Below are positions 31,835 through 55,925 of a DNA stretch of 64,000 bases, piece after piece. Each line of letters begins with the position of its first letter. Position 1 is the stretch's first letter. Both the position numbers and the translations under genes were made by a program. Source of the DNA: Porphyra umbilicalis (taxonomy: Eukaryota > Rhodophyta > Bangiophyceae > Bangiales > Bangiaceae); contig KV919003.1 of assembly GCA_002049455.2 (NCBI GenBank), positions 1 through 64,000 of the forward strand, given 5' to 3'. The notes beneath the pieces were generated by a model. The model was not told the DNA's origin. It ran no database searches and saw nothing but the letters and a program-made list of their open reading frames with translations.

Positions 31835-32991
31835 TCACAGCTCGGCACCAGGCCCCCCCACGGTCGCAGGCGCGTCGCCCCCCCCCATCCCACCAGGCAG
31901 CCGCCCGCCCCCCACCCCCACCGGTCGACGCACGCCACCGCCGCCCACCCCCGCCCGAGGGCATCGACAACCCCCGCACCTGCCGCCGCCGCCACCCGCA
32001 CCGGCGCGAGCGCCGCGTGCGCCACCGCGCGTGGCACGGCGGTGGTGTAGGCGCTGACGCGGAGGCCGTCGACGATGAGCTCCCCCGCCGCCGGGTGGGG
32101 GTTGTACAACCCCACCCCCAGGGCGGGGGTGACTGACGTGACGGCCGCGGGACTGCCATCGGCGGCGGCGAGCGTGTCACCGACGGCCACGTCGGCGGCG
32201 GGCACCAAGTCGCCGGCGGCCGTGTAGAGGTAGTGCCCGGGGGAAGCGCGGAGGGTGCGGGGTGGCGGGCACGCGGGGACCCCGTCGGCCGACGCGTTGG
32301 CCGCGCACCCGACGCCACGCGTCGTGTAGGTGAGGGCGACAAAGCGGCTCACCGCCGCCGCGTCGGCGTGGCTCCACCCCAAGAGTCGGCTACTCCCGCC
32401 CCCCCCCCCCCCGACGTCCGCGCCGCCACCGCCACGCGGTCGCCGGTCGCGAGGGCGTCGACGCGCACCCCCCCCCCCCCCCCGCCAGCGTCACGAGGGC
32501 AGACGCCGGGAAGCAGGCGCGGCGGCGCCTCGACGCTGCCGCGTCGAGCCGCGCGCACGGCACGCGGCTGACAAACTGCACGCCGAGGGGCAGGGCGCAG
32601 GTGCACACCTCGGCGCCGAGCACCGCGACGGCCGTTTGGTCGGCCTGCCCCGCCACCAAGGCGGGCGGCACGGGCGCGGCGGGCGGCCAGGCGCGCGTGA
32701 GCGTCCACGCCGCCCCGTCGACGGCGCGGACGGCAACGAGGCAGCCGGGGGCGGTGCGGGATTCGGCGACGCGGCCGAGGGGGGGGAGGTCTGCGATTTC
32801 GGCGGGGCGGAGGCGGAGGGGGGACGTCCCCGCACGGGCCGAGGTGGGGGGGGACGCCGCGATGTGGGGGGGAGGGGGGGGGGGGGGGGGATGGCAAACG
32901 CGCCAGAGATGGTCGCCGCGACCAGGAGGGCCAGCGCCCCCCTTCGAGCGACGGCGGGGAGGCGACGCAGCACCGCGCCCGGGGGCGCCAT
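31835..32991 (-). CDS. H1: secreted Hint (hedgehog-type) protein, frame broken at homopolymers
   Basis: Starts MAPPGAVLRRLPAVARRG at ATG 32991 with a signal peptide (ALALLVAATISGAFA). The N-module has LRPAEIADLPPL, WPPAAPV and AVAVLGAEVCTCALPLG. The Hint domain starts ACFPASALVTLAGG, with the nucleophilic Cys. VRVDALATGD, the His block RTLRASPGHYLYT, VGLYNPHPAAGELIVDG and LRVSAYT follow. The tail has HAALAPVRVAAAAG and ends GAEL at TGA 31835. The frame shifts at G/C runs 32874-32890 (17), 32468-32483 (16) and 32399-32412 (14), and once more in the tail near 31875. The total length of about 385 codons equals intact copies. The Hint domain resembles H4 most, the N-module H2. By family knowledge it should cleave before Cys; no assay is implied. 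Confidence 0.8.
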
Positions 32992-34222
32992 AAAGACCCA
33001 AGGCGGCGGGTGCGAATAGGCGGGGCGTCCGCGACGGGGAGGCACGGGAGCCGCAGCGCGGCTCAGCCGCGACAACGCAGGCACCACAGCGAGCCCGTCG
33101 GCGCCGAAAAAGACCGCAACGGACACGCCTCGAGGCGCAGACCGCAGCGCGACACCCGCTCCCTTGGGGGCCGCCGACTCGCGCGCCGGCGCCTCCAAAA
33201 GCGCGCCACCGCCGCTCCGCAGCGGTGCCGCCGCGCCCACACACGGCCCACGCGTCCGCCTCCAACCGCCACCGGCTGGCGCCCGTGGGCTGTGCCGTCG
33301 GCGGGGCCGCCGCCGGGCGGGCGCGCTGGCAGGGCGGGCGGCGGCGCCCGTCGCGCCGAGGCCACCCGCCTTTGGCAGGGCGACGGCCGCGGCCGGCCAT
33401 GGCGGCCGACGGGTGGTCCGCCGGCGACGCCGACGGCGTGGCCGCGATCAGCAACACGCGGCGGGCCCAGCAGGGCAAAAACACGCTCGAGCGAGGGGGG
33501 GGCCCGCTCAACGCGGGTGCCTGTGGGAGTGCACCCGCGGGTGCACCCGCGGCAGCCGACCGCCGACCTCGCACGCCCCGCCCGGTCGGCTGGTCGATGC
33601 GGCGACCGCGCGGGCGGCGCCCGTGCGGGACGTGATGGCCAAGCCACCACCACCGCACGGGGGGGTGCAAAAGGCCGCGACGTGGACCGGCGCTTGCGGC
33701 GGCTGCCGCTTTTGAGGTTGGGAGGCTGCTGTTCCCAGCGGGGACGGAGGGGCCCACCGGCCGGTGGCGCCCGGATGCGCGCGCGTGGGTGTGTGCGTCA
33801 GCAGGGGCGATCATCGCCCCTGTGTCTGCCATCATGGCAGACGCAGGGGCCCCCTGTGTCATGATGATGGCAGACAGCACCGCTGGTGCCGAGTCGAGAT
33901 TGGAGGGCGGCGGCGCAAGGCCCTTGCTCGGCCCGGCCGTAGCGTTACGCGCGATGACGCTGCCACCCGCCATCGACGGGGCGGCTGCCTGCCTGTGGCG
34001 GCAAATCGTTTCGGCGAGCAGGGGGGGGGTGTTGCCGTCGCCGCCACGGCTGTGTTTGGTGTGGTGGAGACGCCCACGTCTGGTGGCCATCCGTCGGCAT
34101 GGAGAAACAATGCCGAGCACCTTGTGCGCGGCCCCCATGGACATCTACTCGTCTTGGCGTCCACGCCCGCGCTCTGTCTACGAAAAAAGTACGAACCCCT
34201 ACTCCCCGCTCGCGCGGGTGCC
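32992..34222. other. Intergenic between H2 and H1
   Basis: About 1.2 kb. It contains a near-palindrome GTCTGCCATCATGGCAGAC at about 33824 and a repeat of its halves to 33885. The GC-rich part (33000-33700) has open frames on every strand; none is supported. Confidence 0.5.
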
Positions 34223-35402
34223 TCACAACTCGCCACCGACCATGCCGGCAGCTACGACCGAGTCGCCGCCCCCCACCGCCGCCAGCCAGGCGCCCACCCC
34301 CACCACGAGGCGGCGCACCCCAGTGACCGCCGGCCACACCCGTCCGAGGGGGTCGACCACCCCCGCCGCCGCCGCCACCCGCACCGGCGCGAGCGCCGCG
34401 TGCGCGATCGGCGGCGGCACCGCCGTCGTGTAGGCGCTGACGCGCAGGCCGTCGACGATGAGCTCCCCGGCGGCGGGGTGGGGGTTGTACAGCCCCACGT
34501 CGAGGGCGGTGGACACGGCCACGACGAGGGCGGGGCTGCCGTCCGCGGCGGCGAGTGAGTCCCCAACCGCCACGTCGGCGGCGGGGATGAGAGAGCCCGC
34601 GGCCGTGTAGAGGTAGTGGCCCGGGGACGCGCGCAGGGTGCGGCGGTTTAGTCCCCGCGGGGACGCCGGCCGGCGGGCCTCGTCGGCCGTGGCATTGACC
34701 GACGGCGCGTCGCCCGCGAGCTCGTACGCAACGACCACAAAGCGGGTGACCGCCGCCGCGTCGTGGTGGCTCCACCCAAGGAGGGGGCTGCTTTGGGCGC
34801 CACCGCCGCCGCCGACCCCGCGCGCAAGGCGGTCGCCCAACCCGAGCGCCCCCACGCGCACCTCGTGCCCGCCCGCCAGCGCCACCGACGCGGCGGCCGG
34901 GAAGCAGGCCGGCTCCTCCCGCGCCGCGCGCACGCGCGCGCAGATGGACGACGGGAAGCGGGCGCCGAGGGGGAGCTCGCACGTGCACACCTGCGTGCCG
35001 AGGACGGCGACGGCAAACTGGGACGATTGGCCCGCCACAATGTCCGACGGGACGGGCGCGGCGGCCAACCAAAAGTCGGTCAGCGCGCACGACGAGCCGT
35101 CGACCGCCTCTGCGAGCAGCCGCGTCGGCAGCGTCGGGTCGACAAAGATGCGGGCGAGGGGGGGGAGCTCGGCGATTTCCGCGGGGCGGAGGAAGGGCGG
35201 CGGCTCCCGGCGGATGGGGGGGGGGAGTCTGCGCGGAGGGCCGACGTGGGGGGGGCGGGGGGGAGGGGGGGGACCCCCCGACCGCGGCGGTGGCGGCAAG
35301 GCAGACCGCCGCCGCCGCGGAGAGGGCGGCGGCGACCGCCGCCGCCGCAAGCCGCCGTCGGACAGAGCGGGGGTGCTGCCGCGCCGCGGGGGACCGCGCC
35401 AT
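34223..35402 (-). CDS. H2: secreted Hint (hedgehog-type) protein
   Basis: ATG 35402 begins MARSPAARQHPRSVRRRL and a long Ala-rich signal peptide. After Pro-rich sequence and G/C runs (about 35216-35275, where the frame changes) the N-module reads PFLRPAEIAELPPL, VDGSSCALTDFW and AVAVLGTQVCTCELPLG. The Hint domain starts ACFPAAASVALAGG. GLGDRLA, the His block RTLRASPGHYLYT, DVGLYNPHPAAGELIVDG and LRVSAYT follow. The tail is HAALAPVRVAAAAGVVDPLG and ends VGGEL. The whole Hint domain and tail are open without breaks. Its Hint DNA is nearly identical to H3 for several hundred bases, while its N-module is closest to H1, which makes it a chimaera. Likely secreted or ER-processed. Confidence 0.87.
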
Positions 35403-35962
35403 CGCGGCGGCTGGGGCGGTGCGACAAACGCAAAGTGGGCGGGGCGCACGGGGATCAGGGAGGATGGCAGCCCACAGGCCACACAAGAGCACTCAGAGAA
35501 GAAGAGACTCGACGCGTCGAGGACCGAAGTATTGGGCGGGCGCCAACGCGCAGCCGCCGACGGCGATTCAAGCGGGGTCACAGGCGGCGTTGCCGTTGCG
35601 AGGCCGGCGCGGCGGGCCACTGTGCGAGTTCCCGTTGCCGCCACACACACTGGCTCGGTGCGGCCGTCTGGCCGGGGGCGCGGTGCGACCGCGCCGGCAC
35701 GGTGCCGGCACCCTGGCATGCCAAGGACCGCCGAGCCACGCCGCCCGCGGGCCAAGCTCAACGGGTGGGGAGGCGTGGGAGGGCGCGCGGCAGTGTGGTG
35801 GGCCCACTCGGTGCCCCCCCACCTCGGTCGTCAGGTGAAGGCATGGGAGCTCCGCTGCGGATACAGCTGAGCTGTACGTCAGGCGGCCCCACCAATCGTC
35901 TCACCGCAGGGCCCACTGGTCTGGGCTGGCGCCCGCGCCAGTGCACACACCCGCCTCACCAG

Positions 35963-36079
35963 TAGGTTGGTTCATAAACTCTTGTTCTCCGCTGGTCAGC
36001 TGGGCCAGTCCAACCCCTCGATCACGTAGTTCAACGTGAGCCTTCCACAGTTGAACCGATTTGACAGATGATCCCAGTC
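35963..36079 (+). repeat. Direct repeat, copy 1 (~117 bp)
   Basis: Begins TAGGTTGGTTCA and ends near AGATGATCCCAGTC; a diverged copy lies 1.02 kb away at 36984-37100. Could be ends of a decayed small element. Confidence 0.7.
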
Positions 36080-36983
36080 GAGAGCACAGGTTCTTGCTTT
36101 GGCATTCGGGCGGGACGTGCATCAGCATTTTACCACATAGCTATATTTACATGGCATTCGTGGAAACAAATCCTCTTCTGGTATCCAGTTTGTCCGTCTT
36201 AATCACTGCCAGTGCGTTGATCTTGTTCCGATGTCGGGTGGCTGAGAGTGCCGCGACAGGACTGGAGATGTGACTGAAGCTGCGTCCTGAGTGAACCAGA
36301 CCCCGTGCACGTTTTGGCTCTGCACGAGTGAACGCGAGCCGTCATGCACCATCAGCGCACATGGAAATTCACGCGAGACGATCTGCAGGCAGGCATGGTT
36401 TCATTGGGCTATGCTGCCCGACCATCGCTAGGCACTCGACAAGCTTGAAGAAGCTCACAAAGAGTTCGGCGAGCCTGATGGCTGTCGTCTTGCCCAAGAA
36501 GCGCATTGCCATGGCTTCTCGTAGAGGCCAGTGGTTCATCATCGCTGCCCCGACCAGACGACGTATCAGCCGACTTGATGACATAAATATGCGTGAGAAC
36601 CTGCTGGTACATGGCGTGCTACTTAAGATGAGGCTGGACTTTGAATAGGCCTTACCCCAAATACAGTTCTGTTCTTGGACGGTCGTGAAGCCTTCTGTCA
36701 GATTTCGACAAGAAGCCCTCGTGCCGGACAAATGCGCATTCCGCTGAGTGCCAGGTCCAGGTGCCAGGTCCAGGTCCAGCCCAATCTGTATTTTTGAAAC
36801 CCCCTAGTGCGCCCGTCGTGGTTGGCCTTGCAGAGCGGGGGTGTGGTGAATCTCGGCGGTCGGAAATGAGCCGTGGCAGGCGACGCCGGTTGCTGCCGCC
36901 CCTGTGGGGTCAACGCATGTCCAAAATTTCGACACTCAGCCTTTAATGCTGACCAGCGGGGCGTCGGGCGGTTCGTCAATGAC

Positions 36984-37100
36984 TAGGTTGGTTCACAAAC
37001 CCCGTTCCTCTGCTCCTTCGCTCCGCCAGTCCAACCCTTAATCACGTGGGTCAACGACAGGCTTCCACATTTTAGAAGCATTGATAGATGATCCCGGTCA
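36984..37100 (+). repeat. Direct repeat, copy 2 (~117 bp)
   Basis: Begins TAGGTTGGTTCA and ends near AGATGATCCCGGTC; partner of 35963-36079. Confidence 0.7.
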
Positions 37101-38051
37101 AAACTTGCCGGCATTCGTGCCAGACTCTCGCAACAAATCGAATCGAGAATGGTAGTTATGTTCAACATTGGCAAGAAAAACACTTCTATCTCGTAACCAG
37201 TCGGAATGTACATACCTCGCCTGCGAGAAGACGGCCACAGCCACGCTGCTCTTGGCCACAAGGAGCAGCGCAACAACGCTTGATCTTACCGAGGCTGTGC
37301 CTTTCTTGACGCTACGTGATGCATCAAAGAGAGTAGTTTGGACTGCGGGTGTCCGCCGCTGCCTGAGCAGCCCCTAGAGCGAAGTAAGATCCAGTGGCGT
37401 CTCTGTCGATTCTGCATTGTTGACCGTGCAGGGATAACCTGAGTGCTGGGGCCTTCCATCTATTGAAACTGGGCGGGATATGGGTGCAGAGGTACGTGGT
37501 GGTGCGTGACATGTTTGGCATGCCGTGTGCAGCGTCTGAATGGCGGTCCAGTCCCATGTCGTGAGTACTTCATGCCCCGGTAGATCGAGTATTTCATGGC
37601 CTTGTTGAACGGAGTTGTAATCAACTTCTCAAAAAACAGATTTTCAGGAGCGTTCTTCAGCGTTCATGGGCCACGAATAGACCCTGTTGTGGCTCTAGAG
37701 CGGGGCTGCTTGACGACAACCCCGCTCGGGGCCTGTGCCCAATTTGCCAGAGCAGCGGAGCAGAGGAGCGGAGGAGTAGATAGCATGTTGTTCGAGTTTA
37801 TGAACACCACCCTACTGTCCCCGAGGAGGTCGACAGTCGCGCTGGGGGACGAGCACTGAATGACCTGCGCATCTTGATTCGACCGGTGCATTCAACCGGC
37901 CGCGCATCGTCAGCTTCTGTCAGAGCCACCCTCCATGGAGTTGGCCCAGCGCACAAAAAAATCTCAGACCAGTCGGGTAGAACGACCGCCTGGAAATTGT
38001 TGTTCGTGTACGGATACGAGCTGAGCCGCACGATTGGCTCGTTCGTGCTGG

Positions 38052-38184
38052 TATTGTGCTTCTCACAAAAACTGGACCTCCGTGCGTCAGCTTCCGTTGC
38101 AAAATCACTGTTTCATTGGCTCAGGGCGCGGTTCATGATGCTGAAGCGGATGTTGCGGATCCAGTTTTTGTGAGAAGCACAATA
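38052..38184. repeat. Foldback element with perfect 25-bp inverted repeats
   Basis: Left arm 38052-38076 starts TATTGTGCTTCTCAC; right arm 38160-38184 is its exact complement; 83 bases lie between. Confidence 0.85.
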
Positions 38185-38935
38185 TACATCATTCACTGTT
38201 ATTGGAATCCACACCGGGTCACAAGTCTTAAATAGAACGAATCAACAGAAGAAACAGTAGGCCCTCATGAGGGCGCTATCGCGTTTTAGCCCGCAGTAAA
38301 TTTTGGCATTGTTTAACGACCCGCGGACCTCGTCGTCATCCCCAAATGTTTCCCACGGCTGTCGGGTGGACCACGTTCAGCACGTTGGACCCCAACGAGC
38401 CCGAGCGAGTCATCCGCGCTGTGGACTTGGGCACGAGTCGTTGGTGGGGCGTTCATTGGGGCGTCGGGGATTCTATTCTGACAACGGTCGAAGTTGACGT
38501 TGGACACCCCGCCCCAGCGGAGTCATGATCAATCGGTGTGCGCCCTGGATGCCGCATCCACACCGCTTTGTTGCAACGTTGGTGCCTCTGCCGCCGCTAT
38601 GTATGAGAGGGGACTCCGGGCGAGTCTACTGTGCCTCGCGTTTCGCCCCGTAGCATCCGTGCGAACGACGGAACGGGCAGCTGTTTGAAAGTGCCGCGCC
38701 GCGGTTTACTGACCCCTACAGTACCCGCCCCCCTGGTCGTGCCCTTCTGGTCTTGATGGTAGTCACGCACACGCGGGCGGCGAGGCCGACTGCGCCCCAG
38801 TCGGCGACCTTGCGTGTTCGCGTCGCACCTGTCTCTGCCGTTTCGGATGCTGGCACGCTACCGCCGGCAGGCGTTGTCACACGACCGCCCCCCCCGCTCC
38901 CCATCGCGTCCAACGCCCCCCCACCGGTGCCCCTC

Positions 38936-40114
38936 ATGGCTCCCACCTGTGTTCGCCGCCGACGGCACGTTGCCGCCACGCGCAAGGCGGCCGCCCTTTT
39001 CCTCCTTGGTGCCGCCACGTTTGGCGCCGCCGCCGCCGCGGCAGCGGTGGCGCCGCCGCCGCCGACGTCTGTCCCGGCGGCGGCCCGCCGAGCAACGGTC
39101 GACCCCCACCGCCCCGAGCCGCTGCCGTACATGCTCCCGTCTGAGATTGCCGCCCTCCCCCCCCTCCGGCGCATCTTTGAGTCGACGACGCGGCCTGGGG
39201 AGCTCCGCGCGGAATCCACCGACGACTGGGCGTGCACGCTCACCTATGACTGGCCGCCGGGCGCGCCCGTCGACGCGGCCGCGCCGTCGGGGCAGCACAA
39301 GGAACGGGCGGTGGCGGTTGTTGGCGACAGCGTGTGCACCTGCTTCCTCCCGTACGAGTACAGCGAGCACACGCAGCGAGACGTGGGGTGTGCGCGCATC
39401 CATGCGTCGCGGGCGGCACGGGGGGAGCGCCAGTGTTTTCCAGCGGCCGCGCGCGTGGCCCTAGCGGGGCGGGGGGAAGGGGTACGCGTCGACGCGCTGG
39501 CACTGGGCGACCGTTTGGCGGTGGCCGCGACGGCGGGCGGGGCCGCCTCGGGCAGCCCGCTCATCGGGTGGAGCCACCACGACGCGGCGGCGGTCAGCCG
39601 TGTTGTTGTGATCACGTACAAGCTCGCCCACGGCGACGGCTCGCGGGTCAATGCGAGTGCCGCGCCTGGCCCTTCCTCTGACCCCACGTCACGGACGCTA
39701 CGTGCTTCCCGCGGCCACTACCTTTACGCTTTCGCTGGCGACCTGGTGCCTGCCGACGACGTGGCGGTTGGGGACTCACTCGCCGCCGCGGACGGCAGCC
39801 CCGCCCGCGTCGTGGCCGTGTCCACCGCCCTCGACGTGGGGCTGTACAACCCCCACCCCGCCGCCGGGGAGCTCATCGTCGACGGCCTGCGCGTCAGCGC
39901 CTACACGACGGCGGTGCCGCCGCCGATCGCGCACGCGGTGCTCGCGCCGGTGCGGGCGGCAGCGGCGGCGGGGGTGGTCGACCCCCTCGGGCGGCTGTGG
40001 GCGGCGGCGGCGAGCATCACCCGACGGGTGCAGGGCGTCGGAGCGTGGCTGACCGCGACTGGGAGGGAGGCGGCGCGGCTCGCGCCCGCGCGTCGGACCC
40101 GCGAGGAGCTTTGA
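38936..40114 (+). CDS. H3: secreted Hint (hedgehog-type) protein, intact
   Basis: 392 residues, open throughout, the best reference copy. Residues 1-38 form an Arg-rich start and hydrophobic signal peptide (ATG 38936; the upstream in-frame start at 38753 has no leader). Residues 61-166 are the N-module (EPLPYMLPSEIAALPPLRR, WACTLTYDWPPGAPV, AVAVVGDSVCTCFLPY, GCARI) with Cys100, 134, 136 and 152. The Hint domain runs from the nucleophile Cys167 (QCFPAAARVALAG) through VRVDALALGDRLAV, GWSHHDAAAVSR and His261 in LRASRGHYLY, where Ser replaces Thr of the usual TxxH. It continues to GLYNPHPAAGELIVDG and SAYT. The tail HAVLAPVRAAAAAG...WLTATG resembles the hedgehog sterol/adduct-recognition end. 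It ends REEL. Predicted to self-cleave before Cys167 in the secretory pathway. Confidence 0.92.
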   Translation: MAPTCVRRRRHVAATRKAAALFLLGAATFGAAAAAAAVAPPPPTSVPAAARRATVDPHRPEPLPYMLPSEIAALPPLRRIFESTTRPGELRAESTDDWACTLTYDWPPGAPVDAAAPSGQHKERAVAVVGDSVCTCFLPYEYSEHTQRDVGCARIHASRAARGERQCFPAAARVALAGRGEGVRVDALALGDRLAVAATAGGAASGSPLIGWSHHDAAAVSRVVVITYKLAHGDGSRVNASAAPGPSSDPTSRTLRASRGHYLYAFAGDLVPADDVAVGDSLAAADGSPARVVAVSTALDVGLYNPHPAAGELIVDGLRVSAYTTAVPPPIAHAVLAPVRAAAAAGVVDPLGRLWAAAASITRRVQGVGAWLTATGREAARLAPARRTREEL

Positions 40115-41456
40115 TCCGCGCGGGTGGCGTCGGCCGAATGGCGTCGGCCCGTGGCCTCGAGGGGCGTCAGGGGGTTGTCTGGACGGGTGCGTGGCATGCC
40201 AAACGGGGAACGAAGAGTGCACCACCGCCTTTGGACAGATGTTTTGCGTTGTTTGTTTCCCGTTGAAGTGGGGGGAGCGGCCAGTGCCAATGTCACGGCA
40301 GGCCACTGCCTCCACCTCACGACTGCACCATTTGCGGCAAAGACACCTTCCAGGTGCCCCTGCCGCGACATCGTAGAATCCCATGGGGTAGCGTCGTCGC
40401 CGGGCGCGTTTGCTTTGAAACACAATAACGTGTCCGACTGCGGGCATTTGCCCGCGGCGTCCGCCTGCGCAGCGCGCTCGTCGCACGCTCGCGGTGGCCG
40501 ACCCCGTGGCGGCAGCTGGCCCAAAAGCACAGCGTCGGCCGGTGAGCGGCGCGAGCGCGGTCGAACAGCTCAGTGGATGCGCCCCGCGCAACGCGAGCAC
40601 CCTGCAACCTGCGCCACGTCCGCACGCGGCGACGCGCGAGAGCGGGAAAGCAGACGGACAAGGGGTGTTTGTCTGCCACTGTCGAGGTGCGGACGGACCT
40701 GGCGACACACTGGTACTTTTGCTGCGGCGCGGCGGGTCACTCGGCCGTGGAGCGGCCCCGCCGGCACCCGGTCCTCTGCGGGCGCGTGGGCGCTCGCGCG
40801 CGTCCTCCGCGGGGAATGGCCCCCGCCCCGTCCCCGTCCACCCACCTCTTCCCTTGACGGAGCCCCCGCGCGGGGGCCCGCGCGGACCGGCGGTCGGCGG
40901 CGGCCGCAGCGGGGAGGTTCCCGCCCCCCCCCCCCCCCCCCTCGCGCGGGGCTCCCCCCCCCCGCCCGACGCTCGCCCGCGCCGTGCCGCCGCGGCGCCA
41001 CGGGACACGCGCCGCCGCGGCCGCCGCGGTCGGCCGCCCCCTTGGCCCCGGCCGTGCGTGACGGCCGCCGCCCGTCGGGGGGAGCGCCGCGAGGGGCCAC
41101 CCCGACGCGGGTGTCGCGGGGGAGGGCCGCACCGAGCCGCGTCGAGCGGCGGAGGACCGAGGGGGGGGGAGGGGGGGGGGGCGGGTGCGGGGGGCCCAGA
41201 TGCGGCGTGAGGGGGCGGCTCTTTTTGCAGGCCGCCGGGGATGCGCGGCGCGCGGCGACGGCGTCGACGTGGGCGTTGGCGGCGGGACGGCCGGGGCGGC
41301 GCGGCGGTGGGGTGGCGCGTGGGGAATTGGCGCGACCGCGCCGCACGCGCGGGGTGCCGGCAGCGGGCGCCGCCGGTGCTCGGGCGGCGGCGCCAACCGT
41401 CCTGAACGTTCGACTCTGGTCCCTGCGGTCCGGCTGCCCCCCCCCCGCCCGGCTTC
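40115..41456. other. Intergenic between H3 and H4
   Basis: About 1.3 kb. The left 700 bases are mixed; 40850-41250 is hyper-GC with C- and G-runs. No gene supported; the H4 promoter must lie at the right end. Confidence 0.5.
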
Positions 41457-42641
41457 ATGGCTTCCGCCCGTGCTCCTCGCCGCGCGCGCGGCGCCTCCAC
41501 CCGGCGGGCGGCCGCCGTCGCCCTCCTCGTCGACGCCGTGGCGGGCCACCCCCCCTGGCGGCGGCGCGGCGCCCCCCCCCCCCCCCCCCCCGACCTTGGC
41601 GCGCGTCGGCCGCGACAATGGGGACGCGGCGCGCCTCGAGCCGCTGCCGTACGTGCTCCCGTATGAGTTTGGCACCCTCCCCCCCCTCCGCCGCGGCTAC
41701 GAGTCCCCAACGGCCGCCGGGCAGCTGCTCGCCGAATCCACCGACGCCGACACGTGCACGCGCACCCGCGAGTGGCCGCCGGGCGCGCCCGTCGACGCGG
41801 CCCCCCCGTCGGGACGGCACAAGGACCGAGCGGTGGCCGTCGTTGGCGACGCCGTGTGCACCTGCTTTCTCCCCTTTCACTACCAAGATCACAAGCAGCG
41901 GGCGGCGGGGTGAGCGCGCATTGCGGCGGCGCGGGCGGCGCGCCCGCCCTGCCAGAGCTTTCCGGCGGCCGCGGCCGTGGGGGTGGGAGAAGGGGGGGGG
42001 GGGAGGGGGAGGTGCGCGTCGACGCCCTCGCGACCGGCGACAGCCTGGCTGTGGCGCCGCGGGCGGCGGGAGGGGGGGTTGGCAGCAGCCTGCTGCTGGG
42101 GTGGAGCCACGCCGACGCGGCGGCGGTGAGCCGCTGCGTCGCCCTCACCTACACGACGCGTGGCCGGGGGTGCGCGGCCAACGCGACGGCCGACGGGGTC
42201 CCCGCGTGCCCGCCTCCCCGCACCCTGCGCGCTTCCCCTGGGCACCACCTCTACACGCCCGCCGGTGACTTGGTGCCCGCCGCCGACGTGGCCGTCGGCG
42301 ACACCCTTGTCGCCGCCAATGGCAGTCCCGCGCACGTCACGTCAGTCACCACCGCCCTGGATGTGGGGTTGTGCGACCCCCACCCCGCGGCGGGGGAGCT
42401 CATCGTCGACTGCCTCCGCGTCAGCGCCTACACCACCGCCGTGCCGCGCGCGGTGGCGCACGCGGCGCTCGCGCCGGTGCGGGCGGCGGCGGGCGCGGGG
42501 GTGGCCGACGCGCGCGACCGGCTGCGGCCGGCGGGCGCGTGCGTCGACGGGCTGGTCGGGGGGTGGGGGGGTGGCTGGCGGCACGGGGAGGGGGGCACCG
42601 ACGCGCCTGCGACGGTGGGTCTGCGCGGCGCGGAGCTGTGA
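41457..42641 (+). pseudogene. H4: Hint protein copy with Cys-to-stop and nucleophile changed to Ser
   Basis: ATG 41457 opens a short signal-like leader. After a C-run of about 20 bases (41572-41591) the N-module continues in another frame (EPLPYVLPYEFGTLPPLRR, WPPGAPV, AVAVVGDAVCTCFLPF). The codon for the conserved Cys of GCARI is TGA (41911-41913), so translation would stop before the Hint domain. Past it, the nucleophile position reads QSFPAAAA instead of QCFPAAAR. After a 12-G run (41992-42003) the Hint body is well kept: VRVDALATGDSLAV, RTLRASPGHHLYT, GELIVDCLRVSAYT, HAALAPVRAAAGAG, end GAEL. If only the N-module were made, it would be a secreted, unprocessed ligand-like peptide. Hint body closest to H1, N-module closest to H3. 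Confidence 0.8.
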
Positions 42642-43127: not shown

Positions 43128-43235
43128 AGCAATATAATGTATGCATTATATTATTTAGATTATTTCATGAATTAATTAATATATTAATTCATCGGCCCTT
43201 CGAGCCCCTTGAATTAATTAAACTTATGGCAGGTA
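43128..43235. other. AT-rich island (left)
   Basis: Dominated by TTAATTAA, ATATTA and GAATTAATTAA words in a genome that is otherwise strongly GC-rich. Contains overlapping palindromes. Confidence 0.75.
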
Positions 43236-43572
43236 CAGCCATTTACACCAGGACTCACCAGGACTGCGTCGTTGCGCCGTATTCCTCGGCGCTTGCAACC
43301 GTCCGGGGGCGGTAGCACCCATGACTTGGGTGGCACCCTACCGGCAGCCACGAGGAGCTTAGCGGCGGCTGGCGGCCGGGATGGCTCCGTCCCGTCGACC
43401 TCAGCGTCGTGCTCGGCGCCGACCCCCGCGGGAGTGGCGGGGCCGGTCGCTGCCACGGCCGCAGCGGCTGGCGGCCGGGGCGTCTGCTCTCCTTTCGGCC
43501 TGCCCTGGTGTGGCTGCGGCCTGCCGTGTCCCGCCGACCACGGTGGGTGCCTCGATTGGTCCATCTTCGTCA

Positions 43573-43662
43573 AAAAATGTAATAAAATGCATTAAAAATG
43601 ATAAAATCAAAAATGAAGTTAATTAATCTATTATTTAATTAAAGCCGGAGTAAGAAATGTAT
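43573..43662. other. AT-rich island (right)
   Basis: Rich in AAAATG, TAATTAAT and ATTTAATTAA words. With the left island it may bracket an insertion of about 530 bases, or mark organelle-derived or matrix-attachment DNA. I cannot tell which. Confidence 0.65.
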
Positions 43663-43977
43663 CATTTTTTCCATCCATGGCGCCGATGGTTTACTGTTCG
43701 TGCGGGGCCCTCGCGGGATGGAGCAAGGGCAGCGGGGTTTGCCTCTGCTGTCTTGGTGTGTGGGGTCTCGCCAGCGACTGTTTGCTGGCTGCGGCCGACT
43801 GTGCTTGGCGGGGGGCCATGACGTTCGGTGAGGCGCGCTTTGGGGCTCTGCGTTGACTCAAGAGGTGAGCGTGCGCGTGCCAGCGGCCTCTGTGTCAACG
43901 TGCAGTGGTGCGTGCACGGCTCGCTCGACGGCTCCGCTCTTCTTTTTGCGCACCGGCTGCACGCCCTCCCCCCCCTC

Positions 43978-45155
43978 ATGGCCGCTCCCCAGACTTTCCG
44001 CCGCTGGTCCCCCGGCACCGCGCGGCGGGCGGTCGCCCTCCTCGGCGCCGCCGCGTCGGCCAGTGTCGTTGCGCTGTCGACGGCGGCCCCCCCCACCCCC
44101 CCGCGCACCCTGCCGCCCATGTGCCCCCCGCGGCGGGGCGTCAAGCCAACTCGGACCCCCTCCGCCCCGAGCCGCTGCCGTACATGCTCCCCCCCGAAAT
44201 CGCGGCGCTGCCCCCCCTCCGGCGCATCTACGCGTCGGTGACGCGCCCGGGCGAGCTCCGCGCCGAATCGACGACCAACTTGACGTGCACGCTCGTCTAC
44301 GATTGGCCCCCCGGCGCGCCCGTCGACGCGATTGTGTCGGGGATGCACAAGAACAAGGCGGTGGCGGTGCTCGGCGACCGCGTGTGCACCTGCTACCTGC
44401 CGTTTGAGTTTTCGTCCATCGCCCAAAAGTCCCTCGGCTGCGCCCGCATCGCGGCGGCGCGGGCGGGGCGGGAGAAGCAGTGCTTCCCAGCGACCGCGCG
44501 GGTGACGCTCGCGGGCGGGCGCCGCGTGCGCGTCGACGCGCTGGCGTTGGGCGACCGCCTGTCGGTGGCGTCGGCTGCGGGGGAGGCGCCCTCGAGTAGT
44601 CCGCTGCTCGGGTGGACGCACCGCGACGCGTTGGCGGTGCGCCAGTTTGTGGCGATTGCTTATGAGCTCCACGGCGGTGCCTCCCGTGCCAACACGTCGG
44701 CCGCGGCGGTACCTCAGCCGCCCCCCTTCCCTCACACGCTGCGGGCATCGCCCGGCCACTACCTCTACACCGTCGCTGGCAGACTCATCCCTGCCGAAGA
44801 GGTTGTGGTCGGGGACGCGCTCGCCGCCGCGGACGGCAGCTCCGCGCTCGTCGTTGGCGTCTCCACTGCCCTGGGGGTGGGGCTGTACAACCCTCACCCG
44901 GCGGCGGGCGAGCTGATTGTCGACGGCTTGCGCGTGAGCGCCTACACGACGGCCTTCCCACGAACGTTGTCGCACGTGGCGCTTGCGCCGGTGCGGGCGG
45001 CGGCGGCGGCGGGGGTGGTCGACCCGCTGGGGCGGCTTTGGCCTGCGGTAGTCGTGGTGGACCAACTTGTTACGGGGATAGGGGAGTGGTTGACGACTGC
45101 GGGAGCGCGTGTTGCGGATGGGATGGTGGCGGGGCTGAGTGGGTTGTCGTTTTAA
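43978..45155 (+). CDS. H5: secreted Hint (hedgehog-type) protein
   Basis: ATG 43978 (MAAPQTFRRW) gives a signal peptide (ARRAVALLGAAASASVVAL). At the C-runs near 44087-44102 the frame moves; the remainder is open to 45155. The N-module has EPLPYMLPPEIAALPPLRR, LTCTLVYDWPPGAPV, AVAVLGDRVCTCYLPF and LGCARI. The Hint domain starts QCFPATARVTLAGG; VRVDALALGDRLSV, HTLRASPGHYLYT, GVGLYNPHPAAGELIVDG and LRVSAYT follow. The tail HVALAPVRAAAAAGVVDPLG continues with IGEWLTTAG. It ends GLSGLSF, so this is the one copy without the -EL end. All Hint catalytic positions are kept, so self-cleavage is expected. Confidence 0.88.
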
Positions 45156-45477
45156 CTACGAGTGCTCGCCTAGCAGACATGATGCGTGAGACGTGCAGGG
45201 TAAGCACGGGAGCCTGTCGCCTGCATACCAACAAACACTCGCACCAACCGCCATTCCAAACAACGCAGCATCCCCCCCGTCAGACTCGCCAAGCCCCCTC
45301 CCCCCCCTCTCCGCCATCACCGTCATCTGCATCCACTCGGGCAGCCACGCGGGGCGGTGGCTCTCGCTCTCTCACCCGCTCCGCCGCTGTGGTGCCCCCC
45401 CCCTACCCGCCGCGCGCCCTCTCCCCCTTGACGGTGGCTGCGGGGTCACGAGCGCACCGTGCAGTCTGCGGAGTCGT

Positions 45478-45541
45478 GAAGGCCGATTTGGAACTCTTTT
45501 GCTACAGTTGGAGTGCGGGGATTTTGGGAGAACGGCTGTAG
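45478..45541 (+). repeat. Solo arm of the 6594-6729 MITE
   Basis: GGCCGATTTGGAACTCTTTT through GGGAGAACGGCTGTA matches the right arm of the foldback element at 6594-6729; the other arm is absent. Confidence 0.75.
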
Positions 45542-46209
45542 CTGTGGTATAGGACAACAGAAGCCCTCCAGGTCAGGTACGGCAGAGAAGACAAGAAACT
45601 TGGCAGCGATTGAGAGGTCAAGTGATCTAGTCGAGTCGTATGGCCACTTGAGCTTGAGAATCGGCCGCACGGGAGTATCCAAATCAGTGCACCAGAGGGG
45701 TGAGTACGTAGTTGTCGGGTTTATTGAGCGTGCGCGTCAAGCAGGGGGCCGTCGCCGACCCGTGGGGGGCCACCGGTCGTTAGCCGGAGGCCAACTGGGC
45801 GGCGGCGGGACGGGCTATCCCCAACCGCCCGGACAGCCGGATGCCCGGCAGCGGGTAGGCGGACAGGGCGCCCGCCGGTACAAGAGAGGGGCGGGGCGGC
45901 GCCGGGCCGGGCGCACAACGACCGGCACCTTCGCTTTCCTCCTCACTAGATCAATCACTTTCACGAAAGTGTAGACCGCGCGGCACCGTCTGTTTTCGGC
46001 GCCCTCCGAGGACGACTGGCAAATCTCGATACATCGAGGCACTAAACACGACCGGTGTACCACACATTACTCAGATTGGCCCGCCTGGTCCCCAAAATCA
46101 AAAATCTCCTGCCGCACTGAATCCTTCAAATTCCGTCCTGCTGACCCGCATAGGACACAGCGCCCCAAACAAGCCACACGGAGACAAATTGTTCATAAAA
46201 CACATTAAG

Positions 46210-46925
46210 TTCCAGGCACGTGCGTGCAATACCCTGGCCTTCAGGGCGGTGGCGCGCTCGGCGACGCATTGACACCGGGCACGCCGGCCGGCTCTATGGC
46301 CGCGAGCGCGCACGGGGGCACGTACAGCCACGTTGCCGTGGTGGGGGGGGCGTACGGCGGGGAAAGGGGTGCCGCCTCCGCCTCCGCAGCGGCGGCGGCC
46401 CGCCGGCGTCGCGCGGCGCCCACGAGCGAGGCCGTCACTCCGCCGCGCAGCGCACCTGCGCACGGCGGGCAGGGCGACCGACAAGGCGCACGGGCGGGCG
46501 GGTGGGACTGATCGTCGCCCGACGAGGCGCCTGTAACCGCGCCGCTAGATGGCGTCAGCAACCGCCGACGCGCCGCCGCAACAGAAGACGGCGCGCAGGC
46601 ACGATCATCCCCGGGTCATCGTGGGCGCGTCGAGCCCCGGAAGTCGTTGCGCGCGGTCACCGCGCGCAACTCGGGGCGGTAGAGGGCGCGCGGGAGCAGG
46701 CGCCGTCCGGGCCCAGTGACCCCTGTGGCAGGACAGTCCTTCTCAGCCACGTAACTCTATTTGTTTTTAGCGTCATCGCGACCCTTCCAACACTGACACG
46801 CCCTCAGATCCCTGAGGACACGAATGCAGACTGCCACCTCTGAAACGGAGATCAAGTCCCTTGATCTAAGTATATGTGTGCATCACTACACTTTGAGAGC
46901 ACCCTGTCCTAAAGGCCAGGGAATA
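46210..46925. repeat. Dispersed ~0.7-kb element, copy 2
   Basis: Same orientation and near-identical to 5857-6593, with small indels in the GC-rich middle. The end (CTAAAGGCCAGGGAATACA) is the same. Confidence 0.85.
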
Positions 46926-47869
46926 CAAAGCTCGATTGTATGAAATGAGGCAGGTGGGGCACAGAACCAGTGTGTGTGCGTTCTCGTCCAAGATGGCCGC
47001 TCTCAGCAATCTGCTATTTTTCTAGATCTGGCACTTGGCACGTCTGATTGACGATGGATCCGACGTTGCATGGCCTCGACAGCCAGAAGCCCATGCGGTA
47101 GCGTCTCCGCATGGCCTTGGCTGACTCAGTCGATTTGAATATTCCCAAGCCGGCAGACGAACTGAGCACACATCTTGTTTTGGACCCTCCTGACAAGTGC
47201 AGCCTTGTCACCTGCCCCGCATTGCTGGACGTCGGCTATTTTCGGCCGGTGCACTGGTCAATCTCCTGCTCTGGTTGATGCAGCTGCTGACTAGAATCCG
47301 GGCTCGCGCGAGGATCAACTTACCGAGAGCGGGTGGTTGGCAGCGGCCGCGCGGGGCTCATGCGTCTTGCGCTGTGGCTCCTGGCGCGGTCGAGAGCGCG
47401 GCATTGCAACGTGACTTCCACACATGTTACTCTGACACGTGTACGCTTTGAGTGAGGGGGCGCTTCCGGCGGGGTGCCGCCCGGTGGGCCCCCACACTGA
47501 ATCCCCGCCCAAGGGTACTGCCCTCGTCCCGGGTGGCGCCGGCGCGAGCTATCCCCGCGCAGCGCTTGGACGTCTAAAATGTGAAGGTGCGGGGGGTGTC
47601 GGGCAGGAAACACCGACCGCCGCGTTTTTGCGCTCTGCGGGTCTCTTTGGCAACGCGCTGGCCAGTCTGGCCATTGTGCTGTGTGGGCCGCAGGGCGACG
47701 CCACGTACCGGGTGGCCCAGCGGTGACGTTGTGTTGCCCCTGGCGTCAAGCGGACCCGCGTCGCACGCCCGTGGTTTGGGTGTCGCGGTGCGGTCGCGCT
47801 CGGGCTTCCGCAGCGGCCAGCCTTCCCTACTGCTCACTTTCTCGCCACCCCGCCTCCCTCCACCGCCCT

Positions 47870-49075
47870 ATGGCTTCCGCTGGTCCCCTCGGGCGACGAC
47901 CTCGCACGATGGCGGTCCGCGCGACGGTCCTTCTTCTCTTCGGTGCTGCGGTGGCGGGCGGCGCTGCCGTCACGGGGGCGGGGGTGCGGCCCTCGCGTCC
48001 CCCCCGCCCCCCGGCGTGGGCGGCGACGTCGACGACGTTCGTGGCCCGACAGTCGTCGTCGCCGCCCGCGCCGCCCCGCGGGGAGCCGCTGCCCTTCATG
48101 CGCCCCGCCGAGATTGCGCGGTTGCCCCCCCTCGAACGCATCTACGAGTCGCCGACGCGGCCAGGTGTGCTCCTTGCCGAATCCACCGACGGCTTCACGT
48201 GCACGCTCACCGACGAGTGGCCGCCGGGCGCGCCCGTCGACCAGGCCATGGTCGCGGGGCAGTCTACAGATGTGGCCGTCGCGGTCATTGGCGACGAGGT
48301 GTGCAGCTGCTTCCTCCCATTTGACGAGAGCTCGCGCGTCACGTCGCGCTGCGCGCGCATTGACGCGGGGCGGGGGGGGCCCAACCGGTTTTGCTTCCCG
48401 GCGGCCGCGCGAGTGGCGCTGGCGGGGGGGGCGGAGGCCCGCGTCGACGGCCTGGCGGTGGGAGCCGCGCTGCGTGTGGGGGGGGCGGCGGGCGGGGCGG
48501 CCGTGAGCAGCCCGCTCATTGCGTGGACGCACCACGACGCGGCAGCGGTCACCCGCTTTGCAGTCATTGCGTATGAGCTACCCGCCGGCGACGGTGGACG
48601 GGCCAACGAGACGGTGGCATCGCAATCGCCTGCGCGCACTGTCCGTACGCTGCGCGCCTCCCTTGGCCACTACCTCTACACCGCCACGGGAGACCTGGTG
48701 CCTGCCGGAGCTGTGGCGGTTGGGGACACCCTTGCCGCCGCCGATGGCAGTCCCGCGCGCGTCACGTCCGTCACCACCGCTCTGGGCGTGGGGCTCTACA
48801 ACCCCCACCCGGCGGCAGGCGAGCTGATCGTCGACGGCCTCCGCGTCAGCGCCTACACCACCGCCGTGCCGCCGGCGCTCGCGCACGCGGCGCTCGCGCC
48901 GGTGCGGGCGGCGGCGGCGGCGGCGGCGGGGGTGGTGGACCCTCTCGGGCGCGTGGGGCACGCCCTCGCGGCGGTCGGCCGCCTCGAAGGCGGGGTGAGA
49001 AGTTGGTGGACTACCGCCGTGGGGGCGGTGGGGGTGGCACCGGGGGCCTCCACCCCCGCCGTGGCGGAACTCTGA
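47870..49075 (+). CDS. H6: secreted Hint (hedgehog-type) protein, intact
   Basis: 401 residues, one open frame from ATG 47870. Residues 1-37 hold an Arg-rich start and signal peptide (ATVLLLFGAAVAGGAAV). N-module residues 72-174: EPLPFMRPAEIARLPPLER, FTCTLTDEWPPGAPV, AVAVIGDEVCSCFLPF, and Cys111, 145, 147 and 161. The Hint domain starts at Cys175 (FCFPAAARVALAGG); His267 lies in RTLRASLGHYLY; GLYNPHPAAGELIVDG is at 308-323 and SAYT at 327-330. The tail HAALAPVRAAAA...RSWWTTAVG ends AVAEL. The acidic/Gly motif ALxxGDRL of other copies is altered (GLAVGAALRV). Expected to self-cleave before Cys175 and secrete an N-product of about 14 kDa after signal removal (estimate from length). Confidence 0.92.
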   Translation: MASAGPLGRRPRTMAVRATVLLLFGAAVAGGAAVTGAGVRPSRPPRPPAWAATSTTFVARQSSSPPAPPRGEPLPFMRPAEIARLPPLERIYESPTRPGVLLAESTDGFTCTLTDEWPPGAPVDQAMVAGQSTDVAVAVIGDEVCSCFLPFDESSRVTSRCARIDAGRGGPNRFCFPAAARVALAGGAEARVDGLAVGAALRVGGAAGGAAVSSPLIAWTHHDAAAVTRFAVIAYELPAGDGGRANETVASQSPARTVRTLRASLGHYLYTATGDLVPAGAVAVGDTLAAADGSPARVTSVTTALGVGLYNPHPAAGELIVDGLRVSAYTTAVPPALAHAALAPVRAAAAAAAGVVDPLGRVGHALAAVGRLEGGVRSWWTTAVGAVGVAPGASTPAVAEL

Positions 49076-50773
49076 CCCGCGGCACGGTACTGCTAGCGAG
49101 GCGAGCGGCGGCATCTCGGCTGTCATCCTGAATGTACGTGCGCTGCTTGCTGCGGGAACTGGGTAAGGCTGCGGCGCGCGGTGCGCGTGACGGTGGCGCG
49201 GCCGAGGGGGCCGTCGCCGGCGCGTGTTTGGGGACAATCCTGTCTGGCACTGTGAGGTGGTGGGCCACCGCCCCCTCTGGGGGGGGCAGCGGTGGCTGGT
49301 GCCGTGGCGGTCGACGGCCAATGGTACGGGTGATGGTGTGGGCCAGGGTGGGGCTGCCCCGGGGCAAGGGGCCCCTTGCGGCGGTGTGTGGTGGCGGGCC
49401 ACGAGAGCCAGTCGACTCTGAGCGAGAGAATGTGCGTGTGTGTATCGAATCTGTGTTCCAGGGGCCCTTTGTGGCCCTGTGTGGCCTTCTCGTGGCCCTG
49501 TGTGTGCGGCCTTCGTGTGGCCTTCGTGGACTTCGTGTGGGTGTCCCTCTGTCGCCTTGCCTTGGTCGTGCTCCCACGTAAGCTTCGTACGACGAGCTCT
49601 GTGTTGCTATCTAATCAACACATTTCTGGCCAGGAGAGCCTGATTCCATCGTATGTAAAACACGCTTGATATGAGGGCACGCAAGAGTAGGAGATGTGTC
49701 GGGTGCTGCCTATCTGTGCCGGATGCCTGTGGGTCAACTATCATTCACAGCCCATCCGGGCTGCCCAGAAACGCGTAACGATGACTCACCATGGTCGTTT
49801 GTCAAACCCATGCGCACTTTTTGTCTTTCTTCACTCGTCAGCGTACATGAGGCTACCTTCTGCTCGGCACAGCGGTCCTCTACTGCCACTCCTCCGGGCA
49901 AGCATCTGGCGCTTTTTCTTGCCGCCTTCCGATCGTGTGCTTTCTCTAAGGCGCCAGCGTGTGGAACACCATGTCGTCGCATGATCGCCTGTGGGCCCCA
50001 CGTCTAAAGTTAGTCAAGACCTGAGAGCGGCTCTGTTGGAATCTGGTCATCGGTCGCGACCGTGCTTTCGATGGTTTCCTAAAACTTATTGTGATCATTA
50101 ATGTGGCCCTGACCTCTAGTTGCCTTCTGGGCACTACAGACGAGTTATGGACCACAATGAAGTCGTGCTGCGCGCAATGTACGCCCAACCCATTATGATT
50201 AGAGAAGCCCGGCACAGATTTGCAGTTGATTGCCGACACCGTATCGCTTTCAATGTCATTCATAGAGAGTTTTCAATTCCAGGAATGCCGTCATGTGTTT
50301 CACCGAAGTACAGTATGTGCCACTTTCTGCACGCACACAAGAAAGAAATCCGGGATCCACGACGCCGAGGACCGTTGGCAACCCCCTTGGCCGCTCCCGT
50401 GCGAGTCCCTTTCCAACAGAGCCTTGCCGAACTGCAACCACAGCAGACCCTCGCTTGCGGGTGGTCGGCGTCGGCCGCGCGAGACGCGGCCACGCTGCCA
50501 ACGCATCGCGCGTACACCAGGTGCGTGCCGTGGGCCTGCATGCCGTCTACGTGCCGCTGCCGTAGCCGCCCCGGCGCATCACGCTTGAGTATGAGGCAGC
50601 ACCATGATGCCTTCACGGGCGCGCGCCGGTGATGCACACCCGGTCGCCCAGCGCAGACGGCGCGTCGGATCTGCCGCGCCGCACCCGCGGGGTGGTAGCG
50701 TCCTTGTGCGGCGGCGGCGACGGCCATCCCGCCAATGTGCGCTCGTGATCGGACGCCGCCTCCCCCTCCTCCG
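49076..50773. other. Intergenic between H6 and H7
   Basis: About 1.7 kb. A short degenerate repeat of GTGGCC(C/T)T words lies at about 49465-49545; a lower-GC middle (49600-50350) lacks a gene. The right end holds the presumed H7 promoter. Confidence 0.5.
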
Positions 50774-51939
50774 ATGTGTGCCTCTTCTCTCCGCCGCCAC
50801 CGGCGCCACGTTGAGCCACGGGGCGTGACGGCCACCCTCCTCGCCGCTGCGGCGGCGGTCGTCGCTGCCACCTCTGCAGCATCCCTGCCCAATCCCCCCC
50901 CACCACCGCGGTGGTCCGCCATTACACCGCGACCCCCCCCCCCCCCCCTCCGCGACCCGCTGCCATTTCTGCTCCCCCCGGTATTGGCAACCCCCCCCTC
51001 CTCGCGGCGTCTACGAGTCGCCGGCCCACCCCGGGGATCTCATTGCCAACTCGACCGACGGGAGGTCGTGCACGCTCATCAGCGAGTGGCCACCGGGCGC
51101 GCCCGTCGATGCGATCACAGTGGCGGGGCAGGCGGGATCCAAGGCCGTGGCGGTCGTTGGCGACGAGGTGTGCACCTACTTCCTCCACACAGTGTCGAAA
51201 CGCCCGACGACGTGTGCGCGCATCGACGCGGGGCGGGGGGGGGGTGGCACGTGACAGTGCTTCCCCGCGGCCGCGCGGGTGAGCCTCGCGGGGAGGGGGC
51301 GTCGTACGCATGGATCGTCTGGCGCTCGGCGACCGCCTGGCGGTGACGGCGGTGGCGGGTGCGGCGACCAGTAGCAGCCTGCTCATGGGGTGGACGCACC
51401 GTGACGCAACGGCGGTCCGCCGGTTTGTGGCGGTGACGTACGAGCTCGACGGTGGGGATGGACAGGCCAATACGACGACACTGGCGGCAGCGCCCACCCG
51501 CCGCACGCTTCGCGCGTCTGCCGGCCACTACCTCGAGGTAGAGCTCTATACGTACGCCGGCGACTTGGTGCCTGCGGCCGCGGTGGCGGTCCGCGACGCG
51601 CTTGCCGCCGCTGCGGGTGGCCCCGCCCGCGTGGTGGCCGTCTCGATTGCCCTCGACGTGGGGCTCTACAACCCCCACCCGGCGGCGGGCGTGTTGATCG
51701 TCGACGGCTTGAGGGTGAGCGCCTATACCACCGCCGTGCTGCCGGCGCTCGCACACGCGGCGCTCGCGCCCGCGCGAGCGGCGGTGGGGCTGGGGGTCGT
51801 CGACCCGCTCGGGTGGGTGTGGCGGAGCGTGGCGGTGGCGGAACGGTTTGCCGGCGGGGTGAGCGGGTGGTGGACCACCGCCGGGAGGCTGATCGCCGCT
51901 GGATCGAGGCCCTTTAGTTCCGACGTAGGGGAACTCTGA
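50774..51939 (+). pseudogene. H7: Hint protein copy with in-frame stop before the nucleophile
   Basis: ATG 50774 (MCASSLRRHRRH) gives an Arg-rich signal peptide. C-runs at about 50933-50948 and 50986-50993 change frame in the N-module, which continues YESPAHPGDLIANSTDG, CTLISEWPPGAPV and AVAVVGDEVCTYFL. The second Cys of VCTC is Tyr here. CARIDAGRG is followed by TGA three codons before QCFPAAARVSLAG; the stop fits a CGA-to-TGA change. A further one-base slip near 51296 leads into MDRLALGDRLAVTAV and an open end. The His block has an extra EVEL after RTLRASAGHYL, which would disturb the active site. The tail HAALAPARAAVGLG ends VGEL. Probably non-functional unless read through. Confidence 0.78.
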
Positions 51940-55856: not shown

Positions 55857-55925
55857 GCAGTAAGGGGCAGTACGGGGCAGTACGGGGCAGTACGGGGCAA
55901 TACGGGGCAGTAAGGGGCAGAAGGG
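55857..55925 (+). repeat. 10-bp tandem repeat CGGGGCAGTA (left arm)
   Basis: About six copies of CGGGGCAGTA or one-base variants; the right arm has the complement (TACTGCCCCG) at about 58033-58095 with a different copy number. Confidence 0.85.

What the first reader, a model, noticed from the sequence alone, without database searches (positions are those of the whole stretch)
31835..51939. Cluster of seven secreted hedgehog-type Hint (Hog) proteins in an algal genome
Seven paralogues in 20 kb share signal peptide, Pro linker, a common N-module, a Hint domain with CFP nucleophile and GHYLY His block, and a hedgehog-like tail. Two are on minus and five on plus, diverging from 35.4-38.9 kb. Hint cleavage that releases a small secreted module would be a hedgehog-like signalling or wall-modification system outside animals. 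Hog-type Hint proteins are known in some algae and protists; I cannot confirm whether this family is described.
Basis: partly seen in the sequence, partly recalled or inferred. Interest (0 to 1): 0.9.

Follow-up and report, generated by a model that had tools for sequence, protein, structure and literature searches.

The report
Hedgehog-type self-cleaving proteins, red alga
A red alga carries a cluster of seven genes, three of them decaying, for secreted proteins ending in the self-cutting domain of animal hedgehog proteins, within a set of about 77 such loci that probably cut off and lipid-tag many different surface and wall proteins.

Summary
The observation largely holds. Seven paralogous Hint loci lie at 31.8-51.9 kb, two on minus, five on plus. 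H3 and H6 are open from signal peptide to stop; H2 and H5 change frame once at poly-C in the proline linker; H1, H4 and H7 look decayed. They are Hog domains (Hint plus short tail): a profile of 40 members finds Drosophila Hedgehog at E=3e-23. The genome is a red alga's with about 77 Hint loci (58 read). The window genes, with one copy elsewhere, form one clade with their own four-cysteine module. Elsewhere Hog follows fasciclin, imelysin, copper-monooxygenase or DOMON-like modules, and one clade shows module swapping. All 56 copies scorable there carry His where Hedgehog has catalytic Asp303; the laboratory variant D303H reportedly keeps activity and accepts more sterols. But the Gly before the nucleophile and the HWY motif of Hedgehog are missing. 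Best reading: a cassette that cuts off secreted modules, probably onto a sterol anchor, not a signalling pathway. Porphyra Hog proteins were reported in 2008; my ten searches found no report of this scale, these fusions or the natural His. Cleavage, sterol attachment and expression are untested.

The parts
31835..32991 (-). H1: Hog paralogue with signal-peptide-like start, N-module, CFPA (32504-32515), GWSHAD, RASPGHY; frame changes before the N-module and at two poly-G runs
34223..35402 (-). H2: Hog paralogue; N-module and Hog in one open frame, signal peptide in another frame (poly-C runs in the linker between)
38936..40114 (+). H3: intact Hog protein, 392 aa, nucleophile Cys167 (39434)
41457..42641 (+). 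H4: degenerate Hog copy; stop in the N-module, nucleophile Cys to Ser (41956), frame change
43978..45155 (+). H5: Hog paralogue; N-module and Hog in one open frame, signal peptide in another frame (poly-C runs in the linker between)
47870..49075 (+). H6: intact Hog protein, 401 aa, nucleophile Cys175 (48392)
50774..51939 (+). H7: degenerate Hog copy; frame changes and a stop just before QCFP
39116..39433 (+). N-module of H3 (106 aa, four conserved Cys), the query for the genome search
39566..39583 (+). GWSHHD in H3: His at the position of Drosophila Hh Asp303
39701..39721 (+). RASRGHY in H3: the TxxH block (Ser for Thr)

Best explanation
The window holds a locally duplicated array of secreted Hog proteins in a red alga, one branch of a genome-wide family of about 77 Hint loci. 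Each intact protein has a signal peptide, a proline-rich linker, a four-cysteine module of about 100 aa and a C-terminal Hog domain. Inferred mechanism: in the secretory pathway the CFP cysteine attacks the preceding peptide bond and makes a thioester, helped by the TxxH histidine. The His at the Asp303 position then activates a lipid alcohol, most likely a sterol, which takes the module off as a C-terminal ester. The Hog part is thus a removable C-terminal cassette for lipid-anchoring wall and surface modules, in the place where many plant fasciclin proteins carry a GPI signal. Shown here: anatomy, homology, residue conservation, module diversity, module swapping. Inferred: cleavage, sterol ester, anchoring, wall role.
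For: A profile of 40 Hog domains hits Hedgehog 6td6_B at E=3.2e-23 and the engineered D303H Hint 6tyy_A (81.1 bits) above wild type 1at0_A (74.8 bits); the family His lies on Asp303. His there in 56 of 56 rows with a letter (58 rows in all), TxxH His 57 of 57, Ser/Thr at the T326 position 40 of 40. D303H is reported to keep structure and catalytic efficiency and widen sterol range (PMC9163320, section 11 read). Cholesterol is reported as the major sterol of many red algae and present in Pyropia tenera, though only 1.3-8.6% of sterols in a study of Porphyra and Palmaria (PMC8234223 passages). Relatives carry fasciclin (two proteins), imelysin, Cu-monooxygenase, DOMON-like modules. Fasciclin-Hog L042/L045 and DOMON-like-Hog L033 share one Hog clade (100/98). 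The four-Cys module at C66 and most fasciclin matches have no Hint beside them. Hog dN/dS 0.34-0.52 in 10 of 10 pairs of five genes (rough). Tails look moderately amphipathic. Many plant fasciclin proteins end in a GPI signal (PMC7758453, start of abstract in a listing).
Against: Gly precedes the nucleophile in 0 of 40 (Ala, Val and others), unlike Hedgehog; the tail is short and lacks the HWY motif of Hedgehog SRR helix 2 in 40 of 40 sequences as cut. So sterol use is not demonstrated, and D303H was tested in a Hedgehog context. The GPI comparison rests on position only; a search for a GPI transamidase subunit in this genome did not complete. No expression data. Structure models were poor (mean pLDDT 47 and 51). 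The same profile also hit two designed Tako8 proteins (E 8e-5), a sign of some composition noise well below the Hedgehog scores.
Confidence: 0.55

Rival explanations
1. Hog works as a plain self-protease: the thioester is hydrolysed and a soluble module is released into the wall, with no lipid attached.
For: No Gly at -1 and no HWY motif (0 of 40 each); short tail; Hedgehog D303 mutants A, N, R and E cleave more readily with DTT, and D303A does not transfer to cholesterol (PMC9163320 passages).
Against: An invariant His at the general-base position (56 of 56) and the conserved motif J-K region with hydrophobic tail would not be needed for hydrolysis alone.
Confidence: 0.25
2. The thioester is passed to a wall nucleophile (polysaccharide hydroxyl or protein amine), fixing the module covalently in the wall.
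For: Fasciclin, DOMON-like modules and Pro/Thr- or Asp-rich linkers suit a wall; His is described as a base with less geometrical constraint; SRR features are reduced.
Against: No precedent among the Hog papers I opened; the hydrophobic tail favours a membrane lipid.
Confidence: 0.1
3. A hedgehog-like intercellular signalling system with the small module as ligand.
For: Same precursor anatomy as Hedgehog; three Patched/sterol-sensing matches in the genome, two in long frames.
Against: No Hedge domain in the scanned proteins; N-modules of several kinds with no BLAST link among the loci read; the Patched-family genes are as expected for NPC1 (recalled, not tested).
Confidence: 0.06
4. Mostly dead gene copies: the cluster is decaying tandem repeats with no working product.
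For: Three of seven copies are broken and lost conserved cysteines; two more change frame in the linker.
Against: H3 and H6 are intact; Hog dN/dS 0.34-0.52 in 10 of 10 pairs, though these pairs share five sequences, one from another contig, and G+C bias makes the values rough.
Confidence: 0.04

Closest known systems
Red-algal Hog proteins of Porphyra haitanensis, P. yezoensis, Chondrus, Griffithsia, Gracilaria (Buerglin 2008, PMC2362128; sections 9 and 16 read, other passages)
   Same: Hog with motifs J and K, motif J Cys mostly replaced, a conserved upstream region in the Porphyra pair
   Different: That survey saw one to six ORFs or fragments a red-algal species and named distinct known fused domains only for GmGIN1 and Hoglet; here about 77 loci, several with fasciclin, imelysin, Cu-monooxygenase or DOMON-like modules, and a seven-gene cluster
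Cyanidiophyceae non-Hh Hog proteins (PMC13353863 and PMC5405695, passages read)
   Same: Red algae; Hog alone or with another module (kelch); several genes a genome
   Different: 2 to 17 genes a genome, subtelomeric, mostly haploid-expressed; different modules
C. elegans warthog/groundhog/quahog proteins (PMC1636047, abstract read)
   Same: Secreted, novel N-modules that also occur without Hog, thought possibly to belong to the extracellular matrix
   Different: Ten Hog genes; N-modules were not compared here
Animal Hedgehog C-terminal domain (PDB 6td6, 1at0, 6tyy, 7e2i)
   Same: Hint by profile, C1, TxxH, motif J-K region
   Different: Asp303 is His in all 56 scorable algal copies, no Gly at -1, no HWY, shorter tail, no Hedge domain
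Inteins and BIL domains
   Same: Hint core; weak structure matches and one weak BIL sequence match at E=0.0012
   Different: Here a C-terminal domain with a tail and no C-extein; sequence far closer to Hedgehog

Membership tests
Hog domain protein (Hint plus ARR) | Hint profile PF01079 | tested here: met
   Over the cut-off in H2, H3, H5, H6 and the H7 piece; H1 and H4 pieces just below it on their own (28.4 and 25.6 against 29.7), H1 at the cut-off
Hog domain protein (Hint plus ARR) | N-terminal nucleophile Cys followed by Phe | tested here: met
   CFPA in six of seven window copies, SFPA in H4; CFP in 48 of 50 fetched loci, one of them in another frame
Hog domain protein (Hint plus ARR) | TxxH block | tested here: met
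   His 57 of 57, Ser 22 and Thr 18 of 40 at the Thr position
Hog domain protein (Hint plus ARR) | Motifs J and K after Hint | tested here: met
   SxYTTAV and LAPxR conserved, aligned to Hh to residue 442; motif J Cys in only 4 of 40
Hedgehog sterol ligase | Asp303 as general base | tested here: not met
   His in 56 of 56, Asp in none; the His variant is reported active in Drosophila Hedgehog
Hedgehog sterol ligase | Gly before the nucleophile | tested here: not met
   0 of 40
Hedgehog sterol ligase | SRR with HWY second helix | tested here: not met
   HWY in 0 of 40 sequences as cut (45 aa past the match, or to the stop); tails past TTAV mostly 35-65 aa
Hedgehog sterol ligase | Cleavage and sterol ester | not testable with these tools
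   needs protein chemistry
Hedgehog ligand | Hedge (HH_signal, PF01085) domain | tested here: not met
   None in the ten window pieces or the 51 ORFs of A1; genome search 0, but its control genomes were silent too
Intein | C-extein and C-terminal Asn splice junction | not tested
   The frame ends in the tail, no extein seen
DOMON module (L055 and four BLAST relatives) | PF03351 over the curated cut-off | tested here: not met
   24.2 bits against 32.7 in L055 only; L033, L037, L043, L044 are linked to it by BLAST, so called DOMON-like only

The most novel reading that the evidence does not exclude
Red algae use Hog as a general C-terminal ligation cassette: dozens of secreted proteins with different modules are cut by the domain and joined, through a naturally His-based active site, to a sterol or directly to a wall alcohol, doing without a separate enzyme what GPI transamidase or sortase does elsewhere.
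Probability: 0.3. Interest if true: 0.88.

Novelty: new variant of a known kind. Interest (0 to 1): 0.6.

Why it matters
Covalent cholesterol on a protein is described as singular to Hedgehog (PMC7242414, start of abstract in a listing). If the red-algal Hog family does it, the chemistry is far older and serves wall or surface building, and about 77 natural loci become available for testing. The natural His at position 303 turns a laboratory base swap into an evolved enzyme class with possibly wider sterol range, of use for protein lipidation. If only hydrolysis occurs, the family still gives a clean test of what the Asp303/His position is for.

Tried and rejected
Structure prediction of H6 and of the H5 module plus Hog with window rows only gave mean pLDDT 47 and 51. 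The second model's best Foldseek matches were inteins and, at rank 2, the Hedgehog D46H (D303H) mutant, but 0 of 212 matches reached E 0.001, so it is support at most. N-module profile against PDB: one match at E=0.99, taken as nothing. DOMON-like and four-Cys module profiles against PDB: no match up to E=1. NCBIfam: none for five proteins. PHROGs: none for two. Rfam: none in the window at the gathering scores. N-module of H6 in IMG/VR: 20 pattern stretches, none confirmed. Alignment rows in a wrong frame were found and dropped (H2, H7, L016) and replaced. Considered and rejected: intein, Hedgehog ligand.

Full report
What the window is. The window is C243:1-64000 of an 83.8 Mb, 665-contig genome. 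It is a red alga: one contig (C665) carries phycobiliprotein genes and four linker matches and looks like the plastid genome, and eight further linker matches lie on other contigs.

The seven genes. PF01079 matches lie at 31984-32211(-), 34370-34921(-), 39419-39964(+), 42267-42488(+), 44457-45005(+), 48389-48919(+) and 51292-51783(+) (the 42267 match is below the cut-off). The N-module of H3 (106 aa) finds all seven genes with E from 3.7e-70 to 2.2e-17 and one diverged copy on another contig (C169:112425-112652, E=5.4e-5); the only other row up to E=1 has E=0.16. The C169 gene (L016) is open from a signal-like start through Hog in one frame. The module has four cysteines (CxL, VC[ST]C, CAR/CRS). 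No Pfam match up to E=1 falls in it, NCBIfam gives none, and PDB gives one row at E=0.99.

Intact and broken copies. H3 and H6 are continuous. In H2 and H5 the signal peptide and the module are in different frames, with long poly-C runs between. H1 has frame changes at poly-G runs. H4 and H7 carry in-frame stops, and H4 has Ser for the nucleophile. Homopolymer changes could be sequencing errors, but H1, H4 and H7 also lost module cysteines by substitution or a stop. dN/dS (NG86) over the ten pairs among H2, H3, H5, H6 and L016 is 0.34-0.52 for Hog and 0.38-1.27 for the module. G+C at third positions is 82-94%, so these are rough, and the pairs are not independent.

The genome-wide family. Eighty Hint matches merge to 77 loci on 63 contigs; the window's seven are the largest cluster, and the next are pairs with gaps of 6.5-8.5 kb on C257, C141 and C242. 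The search ignores introns and scores only the best candidates, and some loci may be fragments or pseudogenes. All 51 members of A1 (50 fetched ORFs and H3) match Hint, by construction; two also match Fasciclin (two domains each), one imelysin, one both Cu-monooxygenase domains, one DOMON below its cut-off. By BLAST at E 1e-4 the N-parts fall into groups with no link between them: the window type (six rows), a four-Cys module group of ten, a DOMON-like group of five, smaller groups and many singletons. Singletons need not be unrelated: several share the four-Cys pattern by eye. The four-Cys module also occurs at C66, with no Hog in the 2.3 kb read and no Hint match on that contig. Of 16 fasciclin matches four, in two genes, lie beside a Hint match.

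Module swapping. In a tree of 45 Hog domains the window group with L016 is one clade (100/99; 0 of 500 shuffles as low). Fasciclin-Hog L042 and L045 and DOMON-like-Hog L033 form a clade (100/98) with L033 as sister of L045 (99/88), although their N-modules show no BLAST link. The bootstrap had not fully settled, and 23 of 41 inner branches are open.

Active site. On the HMMER alignment to 6td6_B the family cysteine, His, TxxH and motif J-K region fall on C258, D303, T326-H329 and the SCY-LAPxR region. The D303H mutant chain 6tyy_A scores 81.1 bits against 74.8 for wild type 1at0_A, with one more aligned column; seven chains matched in all, four Hedgehog, two designed Tako8 proteins (E 8e-5, taken as noise) and one BIL. 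The D303 column holds His in 56 of 56 rows with a letter, TxxH His in 57 of 57. The C1 count of 50 of 50 is by construction, since rows were cut at CFP; of the five loci without CFP in the scanned piece three have it within 600 nt upstream and two do not. Against Hedgehog: no Gly at -1 (0 of 40) and no HWY (0 of 40 as cut). Tails are short and moderately amphipathic: for seven tails, 6 to 50 of 500 shuffles were as high.

Meaning of the His. PMC9163320 (section 11 read whole, other passages) reports that D303H keeps the structure, pKa and catalytic efficiency and greatly improves coprostanol and epicoprostanol as substrates, while D303A stops full sterol transfer but not thiol cleavage. PMC7242414 and PMC7906309 (passages) describe the SRR helices and HWY motif; PMC4695875 (passages) calls Asp303 Hedgehog-specific; PMC13060885 held none of my six terms. 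Cholesterol in red algae: PMC8234223 passages. I did not test whether other protist or nematode Hog proteins have this His; none of the passages read says so.

Literature. Buerglin 2008 (sections 9 and 16 read, other passages; [quoted passage not shown] PMC13353863 (passages) and PMC5405695 (passages) cover Cyanidiophyceae; the first suggests extracellular-matrix construction by lipid modification as one possible role. PMC5784728 (passages) adds nothing on these genes, and PMC8307928 (passages) does not mention hedgehog. Ten searches listed no report of a large Hog family with fasciclin or Cu-monooxygenase fusions, nor of a natural His at 303; only listings were seen for most rows, and the library lacks most subscription papers. 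The P. umbilicalis genome paper (recalled) was not among the 12 rows listed.

Verdict. The genes are new members of the Hog kind. The family as a whole is a variant: very large, modular, with an invariant His in place of Asp303. The most likely job is self-cleavage and lipid anchoring of wall and surface modules; the lipid step is an inference.

Noticed in passing
window 54845-59153: Long palindrome: arms of about 2.1 kb in several stretches, 85-97% complementary, 86 nt apart in the middle. Either a fold-back element or an assembly artefact.
   Followed up: partly
window 5856-6597, 46210-46927, 59275-59960: A dispersed repeat of about 700 bp in three copies at 88-90% identity, one inside the Hog cluster between H5 and H6.
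   Followed up: no
window 28964-30649 (+): ORF for a Thr/Pro/Glu-rich repeat protein (258-bp unit, four copies) next to H1; signal-like start by eye; could be a wall protein.
   Followed up: no
window 17539-19146 (+) and 20883-22334 (-): ORF resembling a PIF/Harbinger-type transposase (by eye) and a neighbouring ORF that may be its partner.
   Followed up: no
window 12001-14000: Stretch with 90% G+C full of short tandem repeats.
   Followed up: no
L063, L064 (C75, C27): Copper type II monooxygenase domains (partial matches over the cut-offs) in one open frame with Hog in L063; L064 below the cut-off. An enzyme made as a Hog fusion is unexpected.
   Followed up: partly
L035 (C21:227242): Two imelysin (Peptidase_M75) stretches followed by Hog in one frame.
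   Followed up: partly
L027, L032, L036 (C141): Three genes within about 44 kb with near-identical Hog domains and Asp-rich linkers, very long in two of them, between module and Hog.
   Followed up: no
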